Origin: a virus
Strand: one strand, 5' to 3'
DNA: 24,134 bases
Virus record (IMG/VR): IMGVR_UViG_3300023481_000012
Coordinates: 1 to 24,134 of that record
A program made the translations under genes and the position numbers. The notes beneath the pieces are model-generated. The model had not been told where the DNA came from. It searched no databases and saw nothing but the letters and a program-made list of their open reading frames with translations. Of the stretch, positions 4,228 to 9,139 are shown in pieces (within the stretch, counting starts at the first letter, position 1; every line of letters begins with the position of its first letter).

Positions 4228-4476
4228 ATGAATATAAATATCTGTTTAGAGTGTTGGCAATACATTTTCAACAAAGTAACAAACGAAAGCTACTCAATAA
4301 AAGAGGCAGATATGTTCGCAAGGCTAGTCGAAACATCGTATCCATCAGCTAAGTTTAAGATTAAGCTAATACAAAACGGCCCTACCTGGTGGAATAATGA
4401 ATGCAAAGAATGTGACACCTGCAAATCTACCGAGCAAGAACAACGATTTACCGTAACAGCAGAGAGGGTAAACTAA
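4228..4476 (+). CDS. Cysteine-rich small protein (82 aa)
   Basis: The N-terminal CLEC and the later CKECDTC give five cysteines in two clusters, a likely zinc site. The middle is helical with a WW pair. No family is recognised. It starts 38 nt after the VRR-NUC gene; its 3' end carries an SD (AGAGAGGG, 4461-4468) for the next ORF, whose ATG overlaps the TAA stop by 1 nt. It is probably an accessory early gene. Confidence 0.55.
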   Translation: MNINICLECWQYIFNKVTNESYSIKEADMFARLVETSYPSAKFKIKLIQNGPTWWNNECKECDTCKSTEQEQRFTVTAERVN

Positions 4477-4637
4477 TGGATGAAATAATAAACGAAACAA
4501 TCTTACAAGTAAAAGAATCAATCGACATGCTTAACGAGTCTTTAGTAGAATTAATAAAAGTAGCTGCTGAAATAGAGCGTAATACAAAACCTCATTTAGC
4601 GGTTGATAACATTAGGGATAAGTTAAATGAAACGTAG
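4476..4637 (+). CDS. Small helical protein (53 aa)
   Basis: An ATG with an excellent SD (AGAGAGGG ending 7 nt upstream) and 1-nt overlap with the preceding stop opens a 53-codon frame ending in TAG. The product is acidic and helical, with heptad-like hydrophobic spacing (ILQVKESIDMLNESLVEL), so it may form a coiled coil. It overlaps the start of the Tat-signal gene by 11 nt. Function unknown. Confidence 0.6.
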   Translation: MDEIINETILQVKESIDMLNESLVELIKVAAEIERNTKPHLAVDNIRDKLNET

Positions 4638-5088
4638 AAACTTTATAAAATCAATATTAGCATTAACTGGCATAGGGTTAGCGCCTAAGTTAATAGGTAA
4701 AGAATTACCTAAAAATGGTCATATCCATATAGATAATGAAACTATATCTAGTGATGGTATTGGTGGACGATATGATAGATTGTATTCAGATTTATTATAT
4801 AATACCGATTGGTCTATTAAAGGTAAGGATATCAGGTATATAGGTACTGGTAATAAATATACAGTATTGGAATTTCACCAATTATTAAAAAACAAATATG
4901 AAAATATAACCGGCATCAACGAATACGACCCTTATCTAGTAGCTATGTCTGAAAAAATAACAGACCAGTACATAGAATTAGCTAATGGATATAATATAGA
5001 TGAATATGCAGCTCATCATTTAACTAATGGAGTAATATATTCACATGGTGACATATTCGCTTATGGCGATACACCTTTAATTGAATAA
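4627..5088 (+). CDS. Tat-signal protein with a domain shared with the protein at 8804
   Basis: A 153-aa protein that begins with a twin-arginine motif (KRRNFIK, residues 2-8) and a hydrophobic stretch (ILALTGIGLA, 10-19), as in Tat export signals; no clear AxA cleavage site follows, so it may stay anchored. The mature part carries DWSI (61-64), VLEFHQLL (80-87), then D..I.L.N.Y.I...AA.HL (113-132). The same pattern, in order, is in the 111-aa head-cluster protein at 8804-9139. The gene is the last before the terminase promoter and overlaps the previous ORF by 11 nt. A periplasmic role such as blocking superinfection is possible, but this is speculation; the export signal is the firmest point. 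Confidence 0.7.
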   Translation: MKRRNFIKSILALTGIGLAPKLIGKELPKNGHIHIDNETISSDGIGGRYDRLYSDLLYNTDWSIKGKDIRYIGTGNKYTVLEFHQLLKNKYENITGINEYDPYLVAMSEKITDQYIELANGYNIDEYAAHHLTNGVIYSHGDIFAYGDTPLIE

Positions 5089-5595: not shown

Positions 5596-6901
5596 CCCAA
5601 AATTAGAAAGAGAACTTAAACGCTGGTATCACCTAAAAGATATCTCAGAGCAAGTAAGGCTAATAACAGAAACCTATCGATTTAAAGTTATTCCAGCAGG
5701 AAGGCGCTCAGGAAAAACAGAACGATTTAAACGAAAGCTAATCAAAGAAGCATCAGCAAACGATAATGAACTCTATTTCGCAGCAGCTCCAACACATCAA
5801 CAGGTTAAGAAGATATTCTGGGACGACCTAAAGCTATTATCATTATCCTCTCAACACTCAAAAAGACCATCAGAATCAGAACTTAAAATATATATGCCTA
5901 ACGGTACTGAGATTCATTTAATCGGATTAGATAAACCAGAACGGTTCGAGGGTGTACCTTGGACTGGCGGTGGCATCGATGAAATAGCAGACATTAAAGC
6001 GGATGCGTGGGAATGTCATATATTACCAGCATTAAACACTGTTAACCCATTAAGACCTGATTATAGGGCGTGGTGTTGGTTACTTGGCGTACCTGACGGC
6101 CTTAACCATTATTATGATATGGCTGAATATGCCAAAGAAGGAAATGACCCTGACTGGGGTTACTATCACTGGAAAAGTTCCGAGATATTACCTAAAGACG
6201 TAATAGACTCACTTAAGCGACAATTAGGTGATAAGCAGTTCAGGCAAGAAATGGAAGCATCCTTTGAAACTGTATCAGGTCGAATATATGAAGACTATTG
6301 CAGCGATAACCACACAAATAGAGAAATAAAAGAAACTGACGAATTAATATGGATGCACGATCAAAACTTTACCCCCTTATCAAGCGCAATAGGCGTTAAA
6401 GACGGTAATGACGTTTACCTTATGGATGAGATAATACTAACCTCCGCCATATCAAAACAATCAGCAATGGAATTTGTGGATAAATTCAAATACCATAAAA
6501 ACAAGAAGGTTACAATTTATGGCGATCCAGCAGGACGAGCAGGTGAAAAACACGGCCATGCATCTGATTACACCGATATTGAGGAAGTACTAAGAAAGAA
6601 TGAGTGGGATTACGTTAGACGCGTTAAAAAGAAACACCCAGCCATTAAAGATAGGCAAAACGCAGTTAGAGCAAAGATTAAGAACGCCGATAACGAGATA
6701 TCACTATTTGTTAACCCTGTTACCGCTAAATGGTGCGATAAAGGCTTAAAGACCGTACAGGTTAAAAAAGGCTCAACATTTCAAGAAGAGCAAAAAGATA
6801 ACCAATATCAACACATAACCACAGCAATTGGATATATGATTGATTATGACTTCCCAGTGGATGAGACTATGTTCTCGTTAGATGTTAAATTTGTACGTTG
6901 A
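5579..6901 (+). CDS. terL: Terminase large subunit
   Basis: A 440-aa packaging motor. The N-terminal ATPase has Walker A GRRSGKT (41-47) and Walker B GGIDEI (131-136, with Asp134 and Glu135). The C-terminal nuclease of RNase H fold shows a first acidic strand with Asp261 (HDQNF) and a second with Asp316 (YGDPAG); a His412/IGYMID segment stands where motif III belongs. The enzyme cuts concatemeric DNA and drives it into the prohead. Length is normal for the family. It overlaps the small subunit by 17 nt. Its TGA stop forms part of the -35 box of the next promoter. Confidence 0.93.
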   Translation: MQSQINPKLERELKRWYHLKDISEQVRLITETYRFKVIPAGRRSGKTERFKRKLIKEASANDNELYFAAAPTHQQVKKIFWDDLKLLSLSSQHSKRPSESELKIYMPNGTEIHLIGLDKPERFEGVPWTGGGIDEIADIKADAWECHILPALNTVNPLRPDYRAWCWLLGVPDGLNHYYDMAEYAKEGNDPDWGYYHWKSSEILPKDVIDSLKRQLGDKQFRQEMEASFETVSGRIYEDYCSDNHTNREIKETDELIWMHDQNFTPLSSAIGVKDGNDVYLMDEIILTSAISKQSAMEFVDKFKYHKNKKVTIYGDPAGRAGEKHGHASDYTDIEEVLRKNEWDYVRRVKKKHPAIKDRQNAVRAKIKNADNEISLFVNPVTAKWCDKGLKTVQVKKGSTFQEEQKDNQYQHITTAIGYMIDYDFPVDETMFSLDVKFVR

Positions 6902-6926
6902 TAAATACCACAATCTTTTATATACT
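6898..6926 (+). promoter_or_regulatory. Late promoter before the portal gene
   Basis: TTGATA (6898-6903), which contains the TGA stop of the large terminase, is followed after 17 nt by TATACT (6921-6926). The predicted start near 6933 leaves a leader of about 56 nt with a small hairpin (6957-6967) and an AGGA SD (6977-6980). Confidence 0.55.
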
Positions 6927-6956
6927 TTAACAATATACGTTCTGTGAGCGTTCATT

Positions 6957-6967
6957 GGCTGGTGGCC
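6957..6967 (+). other. Leader mini-hairpin GGCTGGTGGCC
   Basis: GGCT and GGCC pair (one G-T wobble) around a GGT triloop, 21 nt before the portal start. The identical 11-mer is found at 8773-8783. Confidence 0.4.
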
Positions 6968-6988
6968 TAAAAGAATAGGATAAGGCCT

Positions 6989-8395
6989 GTGACCGTATCA
7001 TCACAACACAAAGATTACACAAAATACCTACCCAGATGGGAATTAGCTCGCGACTCAGTAGAAGGCGCTCCGGCTATCAAGTCTCGAAATGGTGGTAAAA
7101 CATACCTCCCACAACCAAATGCAGAAGATACCCGCAACGAAAACAACGAACGTTACAAGTCATACTTAACCCGAGCTAATTACGTCAATTTTGTAGGTCA
7201 TACCAAAAAAGGGATGATTGGCATGGTCTTTCGTAAAGAGATGTTCGTTGAACTACCAAGCGAATTAGAGTACCTAGAGAAAGACTTTAATGGCGGCGGC
7301 TTATCCTTAGAGCAATCAGTTCGATCGATTCTAGGTGATACCATAGAAACAGCTAGGTTTGGTCTATTAGTAGACTTTCCAGAAACTGATGAAGAAACCC
7401 CAAAGACTAAAGCCAATACAGCAGATTTAAAATCCAATATCCTAAGTTACCGATCAGAAGCAATACTTAACTGGCGTACAGGTGTATTTAATGGCAACAA
7501 GAAACTAATCCTTGTTGTGTTAAAAGAGGAAGTAGAAGAAATACAGGAAGACGGTTTCAGCGTTGATGTTGTTGACCAATATCGAGTATTGAGATTAAAC
7601 GAAGGTGTTTATACTCAACAATTGTATGACAAAAATGAAGAACCTAAAGGGCCAGAAGTAACCCCCACTAAATCAGATAAGTCAAAATGGGACACTATCC
7701 CTTTTCAATTCGTAGGAGCACAAAATAATGATGAATCGGTTGATGATGCACCTCTTTACGCTATGGCTGAGGTTAATATTTCTCACTATCGTAATAGTGC
7801 TGATTACGAGGAATCTAGTTTTATGGTGGGTCAGCCTACCCCTTGGGCTTCTGGTCTCACTCAAGGATGGGTTGATGAAGTTCTTAAAGGCAGTGTTGCA
7901 TTAGGTTCAAGAGCTTTTATAGCATTACCGGAAGGTGGTGAAGCTGGTTTATTGCAAGCAGAGCCAAACACAATGCCATTTGAAGGCATGAAGCACAAAG
8001 AAGAACAAATGATTAAAATCGGCGCTCGTATCATTCAAGATAATTCAGGCGTTGAAACAGCAGAGGCCGCTAAAATACGCTTTGCAGGTCAAACCTCAGA
8101 ATTAGCATCTATCGTTGGTAACATCGAAAGCGCATTAACAACAGTAATCGAATGGGCAGGCTTTTATATGGGTGTGGATGGTGAAGCCTTAATTGAACTT
8201 AACCGTCAATTCTATGACATTACACTAGACGCTCAACAAGTAATGGCAATGATTCAACTATCAGATATCGGCGTTATGGATAATGAGGATATTCAAGGCA
8301 ACCTTAAGCGCGCTAATTGGATAGATTCAGATAAAAAAACTAATGACGCTGTTGACAATTTAGAAAATAAAGGTATCGATTTATCTACTCCATAG
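6989..8395 (+). CDS. Portal protein (DUF4055-type)
   Basis: A 468-aa protein that fits the DUF4055 portal family: HKDYTKYLPRWELARDSVEG near the N-terminus, YLTRANYVNFVGHTKKGMIGMVFRKE (about 59-84), IPFQFVGAQN near 240, HYRNSADYEESSFMVGQPTPW near 270 and a helical crown-type C-terminus. It would form the dodecameric DNA channel that docks terminase and later the connector. It starts at GTG 6989 with AGGA 8 nt upstream. It ends at TAG 8393-8395, but the same frame stays open for another 125 codons, so a longer read-through form of about 594 aa is possible. Confidence 0.85.
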   Translation: MTVSSQHKDYTKYLPRWELARDSVEGAPAIKSRNGGKTYLPQPNAEDTRNENNERYKSYLTRANYVNFVGHTKKGMIGMVFRKEMFVELPSELEYLEKDFNGGGLSLEQSVRSILGDTIETARFGLLVDFPETDEETPKTKANTADLKSNILSYRSEAILNWRTGVFNGNKKLILVVLKEEVEEIQEDGFSVDVVDQYRVLRLNEGVYTQQLYDKNEEPKGPEVTPTKSDKSKWDTIPFQFVGAQNNDESVDDAPLYAMAEVNISHYRNSADYEESSFMVGQPTPWASGLTQGWVDEVLKGSVALGSRAFIALPEGGEAGLLQAEPNTMPFEGMKHKEEQMIKIGARIIQDNSGVETAEAAKIRFAGQTSELASIVGNIESALTTVIEWAGFYMGVDGEALIELNRQFYDITLDAQQVMAMIQLSDIGVMDNEDIQGNLKRANWIDSDKKTNDAVDNLENKGIDLSTP

Positions 8396-8437
8396 CAAAA
8401 TAATGACGAATCAGCCAATGAAACAGATCCAGTATTA

Positions 8438-8773
8438 ATGGAAATACTACAACGTCTATCAGAACCTAAACAGGAATTTATACCTAGCGACCCATTGAAA
8501 CCTACATTTATAGCTGGTGATACACCTGCATCTATACAACCAAACATAACAGTGGAAGCACCAATAGTTAATGTCACATTACCAGAAGGGTTAATAACAC
8601 TACCTGAAAACATGGTAACGGTAACGGTAGAAGCTCCACAAATTCAGGTTGAATCCCCACAAATAACAATCGAAGGCACAACAACACAAATTACCCCATC
8701 AAAGGGTAAGGTAATTAAGTTAGTAAAAAATGACAGCGGCGTTATATCCGGTGCTGACGTAACCGAAAAATAG
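8438..8773 (+). CDS. Portal C-terminal extension or separate proline-rich protein
   Basis: This frame is the same as that of the portal and is continuous with it after the TAG at 8393 (codons 8396-8437 give an acidic linker QNNDESANETDPVL). The 111-aa part from ATG 8438 is rich in Val/Pro/Glu strands (APIVNVTLPEG, VEAPQIQVESPQITIEG), ending KGKVIKLVKND.SGVI, a layout I associate with C-terminal tails of phage head proteins. ATG 8438 has no SD, which argues against independent translation. It may be a read-through extension, a portal split by an amber mutation, or a real small gene. Confidence 0.6.
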   Translation: MEILQRLSEPKQEFIPSDPLKPTFIAGDTPASIQPNITVEAPIVNVTLPEGLITLPENMVTVTVEAPQIQVESPQITIEGTTTQITPSKGKVIKLVKNDSGVISGADVTEK

Positions 8774-8783
8774 GCTGGTGGCC
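8773..8783 (+). other. Leader mini-hairpin GGCTGGTGGCC (second copy)
   Basis: Exact copy of the 11-mer at 6957-6967, beginning on the last base of the preceding TAG and 20 nt before ATG 8804. No promoter is evident here, which suggests an RNA-level or spacer role for the copy. Confidence 0.4.
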
Positions 8784-8803
8784 ACAAACATGAGGATTAG
8801 ATA

Positions 8804-9139
8804 ATGGCATTCGTAGCAGCGGATTGGACAATTTTGCGATCAACTGGAGCTAATCCATTTGAAATAGATTATGTAAGTGATGCTCATGCGGGTACGGCAC
8901 CAACTTATTCAACAGGTATTGAACTACATAGAGCCTTACAAGACTTTGCAGATGATCCCGCGGATGGAACGGAAGAAATCAGTGTAGTCGATTTAGTCCC
9001 ATCCCAACGTGGCGGTGTTGATACAAATATTAGATTAATTAATAGTTATCACATCACACCAACAGCAGCAGAGCATTTAATTGATCAAATAAATCAAGAT
9101 GCACTAGCCTTGATACTAATAGCAATAGGGTGTGATTAA
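8804..9139 (+). CDS. Head-cluster protein sharing a domain with the Tat-signal protein
   Basis: A 111-aa protein with SD GAGG 8 nt upstream. DWTI (7-10), IELHRALQDFADD (39-51) and D..I.L.N.Y.I...AA.HL (73-92) match in order the mature part of the protein at 4627-5088. From memory, long virion proteins of some other phages begin with a similar pattern and continue far beyond; if so, this is a shortened copy whose end (ALALILIAIGCD) is unrelated. Its place between portal and MuF-like genes suggests a virion role. The stop overlaps the next ATG by 1 nt. Confidence 0.6.
   Translation: MAFVAADWTILRSTGANPFEIDYVSDAHAGTAPTYSTGIELHRALQDFADDPADGTEEISVVDLVPSQRGGVDTNIRLINSYHITPTAAEHLIDQINQDALALILIAIGCD

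What the first reader, a model, noticed from the sequence alone, without database searches (positions are those of the whole stretch)
4627..5088. Tat-signal phage protein that shares a domain with a head-cluster protein
The protein at 4627 has KRRNFIK plus a hydrophobic stretch, a Tat-type export signal, rare in phages. After it the ordered motif DW[ST]I, a [FL]H helix and D..I.L.N.Y.I...AA.HL is also found in the 111-aa protein at 8804-9139, without any signal. One copy would be exported or membrane anchored and the other would lie in the head cluster. An exported copy of a virion-domain suggests a decoy that blocks superinfection or a partner in DNA entry. This is inference.
Basis: partly seen in the sequence, partly recalled or inferred. 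Interest (0 to 1): 0.72.

Follow-up and report, generated by a model that had tools for sequence, protein, structure and literature searches.

The report
Exported copy of phage fibre-like domain
A bacterial virus encodes a small protein that joins an export-type signal to a domain otherwise found only at the front of long, probably virus-surface proteins; the join is real and rare, but what it does (perhaps keeping rival viruses out) is untested.

Summary
The 153-aa protein (4627-5088) starts with a Tat-like RRNFIK signal or anchor, followed by a polar spacer and a domain truly homologous to the 111-aa protein at 8804-9139: profile score 60.7 bits against at most 14.4 in 20,000 shuffles, hhalign E 1e-16. 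The domain is the N-terminal ~110 aa of an unnamed family of 476-860-aa fibre-like proteins in more than 100 uncultivated-phage contigs, not found in Pfam, PHROGs or named phage genomes. Beside the window, only one other stand-alone copy was found, without a signal; no other copy carries a signal.

Its first ~92 residues are the start of such a fibre-like gene; its last ~13 match the end of a different small gene preceding the head-morphogenesis gene in relatives. It is an in-frame deletion scar, and the neighbouring portal extension is cut off by an amber stop. The two window copies belong to different branches.

Best reading: an envelope-targeted stand-alone fibre domain, most likely an accessory protein of the superinfection-exclusion kind. 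Targeting is likely; exclusion is inference without direct support. Interest is moderate: rare architecture, one example, no functional evidence.

The parts
4627..5088 (+). P0001: 153-aa protein = Tat-like signal/anchor + spacer + DWxI domain
4627..4695 (+). residues 1-23, MKRRNFIKSILALTGIGLAPKLI: RR-type signal peptide or N-terminal membrane anchor (inferred)
   Evidence: motif compared with S/T-RR-x-F-L-K (PMC6085387)
4696..4803 (+). residues 24-59, polar low-confidence spacer
   Evidence: pLDDT below 50 for most of residues 1-58
4804..5064 (+). residues 60-146, DWxI domain, strand-strand-helix-strand-strand-(short helix)-strand-strand
4476..4637 (+). 53-aa ORF overlapping the P0001 start codon (same transcript likely, inference)
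8804..9139 (+). P0002: 111-aa deletion-scar ORF
8804..9079 (+). residues 1-92 of P0002: start of a DWxI fibre-like gene (77.6% DNA identity to L042 over 8804-9075)
9098..9136 (+). residues 99-111 of P0002 (DALALILIAIGCD): C-terminal end of the small coiled-coil gene that precedes the head-morphogenesis gene in L002 and L004
6989..8395 (+). portal protein, ending at an amber stop
8438..8773 (+). former portal C-terminal beta-repeat extension, same frame as the portal; continuous with the portal in L002, L003, L004
9139..10185 (+). head morphogenesis protein (Mu F-like) at the far end of the slot

Best explanation
P0001 is an envelope-targeted, stand-alone copy of the N-terminal 'DWxI' domain of a widespread unnamed family of long fibre-like phage proteins. 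SHOWN: homology, architecture, conserved domain core, absence of any fibre body. LIKELY: the N-terminus sends it to the Tat pathway or holds it as an uncleaved anchor, so that spacer and domain face the periplasm. INFERRED: it is an accessory ('moron') protein of the superinfection-exclusion kind, which acts from the envelope of the infected or lysogenic cell by binding a partner that the matching domain of an incoming phage would bind. In the window the phage's own fibre-like gene is reduced to a remnant (P0002), so the phage itself no longer carries an intact DWxI fibre in this slot.
For: Homology. Compact predicted domain (block means of pLDDT 85-91 for residues 61-90 and 111-140) behind a low-confidence spacer. 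RRNFIK fits S/T-RR-x-F-L-K and the published TatP pattern RR.[FGAVML][LITMVF]; moderate hydrophobicity (max 13-residue mean 1.79) as in Tat signals. No other domain-bearing protein in about 245 fetched loci has such a signal. Anchor + spacer + effector domain is the layout of Ltp, and many exclusion proteins lie on the outer side of the cytoplasmic membrane through an N-terminal helix or lipid anchor (PMC3952083). T5 Llp shows that a periplasmic phage protein can exclude (PMC9586334). The gene sits just before the terminase genes and overlaps the preceding small ORF.
Against: No relative with a signal was found, so neither conservation of the signal nor selection on it can be tested. The copied domain is the N-terminal end, which in fibres usually docks to the virion, and a periplasmic protein of a Gram-negative cell would not normally meet that part of an adsorbing virion. 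No significant match to any exclusion family (phrog_1510 E 0.14). Uncharged run of 12 residues, no clear cleavage site. Nothing here shows directly that the long proteins are in virions.
Confidence: 0.3

Rival explanations
1. P0001 is exported but serves another envelope function (lysogenic conversion, binding a periplasmic or cell-wall ligand, aiding lysis or release), reusing the DWxI fold as a general binding module.
For: The domain is modular: a 76-aa stand-alone copy without a signal exists in L112. No exclusion family matches.
Against: No ligand-binding family or fold match; the long-protein context points to virion biology.
Confidence: 0.27
2. P0001 is not exported: the N-terminal segment only tethers the domain to the inner face of the membrane or to another hydrophobic partner, where it competes with or helps assembly of fibre proteins inside the cell.
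For: Only 12 uncharged residues, no AxA-type site, lysine at 21 and 25; L112 shows that a stand-alone copy without a signal can exist.
Against: RRNFIK placed directly after the start with a moderately hydrophobic stretch is the classical Tat layout.
Confidence: 0.23
3. P0001 is a relic: a fragment of a former fibre-like gene that happened to land behind a signal and has no function, like P0002.
For: P0002 shows that fibre-like genes decay in this genome; P0001 sits on a very long branch.
Against: The ORF is intact over 153 codons, has a ribosome-binding-like site, and keeps the family's core residues (D61, W62, Y71, G73, T79, D113, L118).
Confidence: 0.13
4. The signal-domain join or the P0002 fusion is an assembly artefact of the metagenome.
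For: The record is one uncultivated linear contig and no second phage shows either join.
Against: P0002 is fused in frame and keeps the TAATG overlap with the head-morphogenesis gene, and the small gene also ends right at that start codon in L002 and L004; P0001 is very divergent from every other copy, so no donor sequence is at hand for a chimera.
Confidence: 0.07

Closest known systems
Unnamed DWxI fibre-like phage proteins (e.g. L042, L048, L095, L112 of IMG/VR)
   Same: Domain sequence, core residues and predicted secondary-structure order
   Different: They are 476-860 aa, begin with the domain a few residues after the start and have no signal; P0001 is the domain alone behind a signal
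Ltp superinfection-exclusion lipoprotein of phage TP-J34 (PMC3952083)
   Same: Layout of membrane anchor, polar spacer, effector domain; small phage protein
   Different: Ltp is a lipoprotein of a Gram-positive host with repeat domains against the tape measure protein; no sequence relation was found and no exclusion is shown for P0001
Llp/Cor exclusion lipoproteins (T5, T1; PMC9586334)
   Same: Small phage protein placed in the envelope
   Different: Llp is a lipoprotein binding the receptor FhuA from the periplasm; P0001 has no lipobox and resembles a phage fibre-like domain
phrog_1510 (superinfection exclusion) and Pfam DUF7777
   Same: Weak alignments over the domain (residues 76-125, E 0.14; residues 68-130, E 0.014)
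   Different: Both are below accepted thresholds, and the other family members do not match them

Membership tests
DWxI fibre-like N-terminal domain family (defined here) | Significant match to a profile built without the query | tested here: met
   60.7 bits against at most 14.4 in 20,000 shuffles; hhalign E 1.2e-16
DWxI fibre-like N-terminal domain family (defined here) | Strand-strand-helix-strand-(strand)-helix-strand-strand order | tested here: met
   AlphaFold2 models of P0001 and of L048 residues 1-108; no superposition was made
DWxI fibre-like long proteins | Domain at the very N-terminus of a 476-860-aa protein | tested here: not met
   P0001 has a 59-aa signal and spacer before the domain and nothing after it; P0002 is truncated
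Tat substrates | S/T-RR-x-F-L-K-type motif near the N-terminus | tested here: met
   KRRNFIK at residues 2-8; fits RR.[FGAVML][LITMVF]
Tat substrates | Uncharged, moderately hydrophobic h-region of sufficient length | tested here: inconclusive
   SILALTGIGLAP, 12 residues, max 13-residue mean 1.79; the TATFIND minimum of 13 is from my own knowledge
Tat substrates | Signal-peptidase recognition site in the c-region | tested here: inconclusive
   No AxA-type motif by eye in residues 18-32; may be an uncleaved anchor
Tat substrates | Export that depends on TatC | not testable with these tools
   needs a reporter assay
Superinfection-exclusion proteins | Significant similarity to a described exclusion family | tested here: inconclusive
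   Only phrog_1510 at E 0.14; exclusion proteins share no common family, so this decides little
Superinfection-exclusion proteins | Expression blocks infection at entry | not testable with these tools
   needs plating assays

The most novel reading that the evidence does not exclude
Phages export a stand-alone copy of a fibre's docking domain to the cell envelope, where it mimics that part of the virion and blocks rival phages that carry the full-length protein: exclusion by virion-domain mimicry through the Tat pathway.
Probability: 0.13. Interest if true: 0.75.

Novelty: new variant of a known kind. Interest (0 to 1): 0.42.

Why it matters
If true, it would join two known themes (small envelope-anchored phage exclusion proteins, and fibre domains) in a way not found in the papers searched here: a phage exporting a piece of a virion-type protein. 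Independently of that, the work defines an unnamed domain family present in more than 100 uncultivated-phage contigs but not found in Pfam, PHROGs or the 50,697 named phage records searched.

Tried and rejected
Single-sequence searches with P0001 in viral contigs and named phages found nothing, nor did its signal and spacer alone. P0002 and three long or stand-alone relatives found nothing in named phages. Pfam, PHROGs and NCBIfam gave no significant family for the domain. Foldseek against PDB and BFVD with the P0001 model, and the VIA second look, gave no match; this does not show that the fold is new. Two PDB sequence hits (LacI-type 3ctp, E 0.01) were judged chance. Whole-record searches: 17 contigs related by portal hold no copy of the domain; records with the long protein hold one copy each, except the L112 contig and one contig whose two ends repeat the same gene. 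Recent duplication of P0002 into P0001 was rejected by the tree, with the caution that P0001's branch is very long. The genome-contig scan gave a single locus, in an Acidimicrobiia MAG. Literature searches for Tat signals with superinfection exclusion or viral contigs returned no paper.

Full report
What was checked. The window is a whole 24,134-base uncultivated virus record, linear. It carries terminase, portal, head-morphogenesis and lysozyme genes; its terminase large subunit is up to 67% identical to that of named gammaproteobacterial phages such as Acinetobacter phage Silvergun.

Homology. A direct BLASTP of the two gives E 3e-4. Relatives make it decisive. P0002 finds ten viral loci, P0001 then matches two of these at E below 1e-7 on its own, and alignment-based scans found over a hundred contigs in all. 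A profile of these, built without either window protein, scores P0001 at 60.7 bits; the best of 20,000 shuffles of its domain reaches 14.4. hhalign gives E 1.2e-16 for P0001 and 3e-29 for P0002.

What the domain is. In nearly all relatives it is the first ~110 residues of a 476-860-aa protein (where the contig holds the whole gene) without any signal. No such protein tested matches Pfam or PHROGs, and none of those tried finds a named phage. The predicted structure of L048 (561 aa) is rich in beta strands; its C-terminal part resembles domains of phage tail tubes and tail tips and pilin-like Ig folds at modest scores (Z up to 8.6), which may mean only a common arrangement. Next to it lie collagen-like, LamG-like or other fibre-like genes (these names read by eye), and in distant phages a similar row of genes recurs. 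I therefore call it fibre-like; that it is in the virion is inference.

What P0002 is. In L002 and L004 the space between portal and head-morphogenesis gene holds another gene (in L002 phrog_1645, virion structural, E 2.8e-31) and then a small coiled-coil gene ending DALALILIMQLL or NALALILILANI. P0002 ends DALALILIAIGCD, and its DNA matches the fibre-like gene of L042 only up to 9075. P0002 is thus the start of a fibre-like gene fused in frame to the last codons of the small gene, with everything between deleted. It is not an intact head protein.

The portal next door. The portal frame stops at TAG (8393-8395) but continues open to 8773; in L002, L003 and L004 the same stretch is one continuous portal with a beta-repeat C-terminal extension. 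Among the portal relatives examined, the extension occurs only where a gene fills the slot (L003 is cut off before this can be seen); portals without it abut the head-morphogenesis gene, except L017 with about 300 bases. This suggests, but does not show, that the extension and the slot protein work together, and that both are decaying here.

P0001 itself. MKRRNFIKSILALTGIGLAPKLIGKELPK fits the Tat motif (PMC6085387), with a moderately hydrophobic stretch of 12 uncharged residues and no clear cleavage site; Tat targeting or an N-terminal anchor is likely, not proven. A spacer of low predicted confidence follows, then a confident compact domain with no match in PDB or BFVD. It keeps the family's invariant residues but sits on a very long branch, apart from P0002's group. 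No other signal-bearing copy was found in about 245 loci; one other stand-alone copy, without a signal, lies in the L112 contig.

How it may work. The layout of anchor, spacer and effector domain is that of Ltp, and many exclusion proteins are held on the outer face of the cytoplasmic membrane (PMC3952083); T5 Llp excludes from the periplasm (PMC9586334). On this analogy I favour an envelope-placed accessory protein of the exclusion kind, at low confidence. The main difficulty is that the copied part is an N-terminal, probably docking, end, which an adsorbing virion would not normally present to the periplasm. Another envelope function, a non-exported tether, and a relic remain open.

Novelty. 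The architecture is new to the collections searched and the domain family is unnamed, but the case rests on one protein in one contig and has no functional evidence.

Noticed in passing
8393-8395 and 8396-8773: Amber stop (CCA TAG CAA) splits the portal from a C-terminal beta-repeat extension that is continuous in L002, L003 and L004; TAG is an ordinary stop in 7 of 40 window genes, so this is a nonsense split or possibly leaky readthrough.
   Followed up: partly
8396-9139; L002, L004, L020 and other portal loci: Portals with the C-terminal extension occur only where a gene fills the slot before the head-morphogenesis gene; portals without it abut that gene (L017 an exception of about 300 bases).
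   Followed up: partly
L112:593-823: 76-aa stand-alone copy of the DWxI domain without a signal, in the same contig as a full-length copy (5989-7638).
   Followed up: partly
L064, L067, L096, L112, L114, L117, L155: Recurrent row of a DWxI protein, often a second long fibre-like protein, and a protein starting like VNWxTKVIxIPKxDL; the last has an N-terminal pattern reminiscent of the DWxI domain.
   Followed up: no
L159 and L160 (IMGVR_UViG_3300036768_000595): The two ends of this contig carry the same DWxI gene, which suggests a terminally redundant or circular assembly.
   Followed up: no
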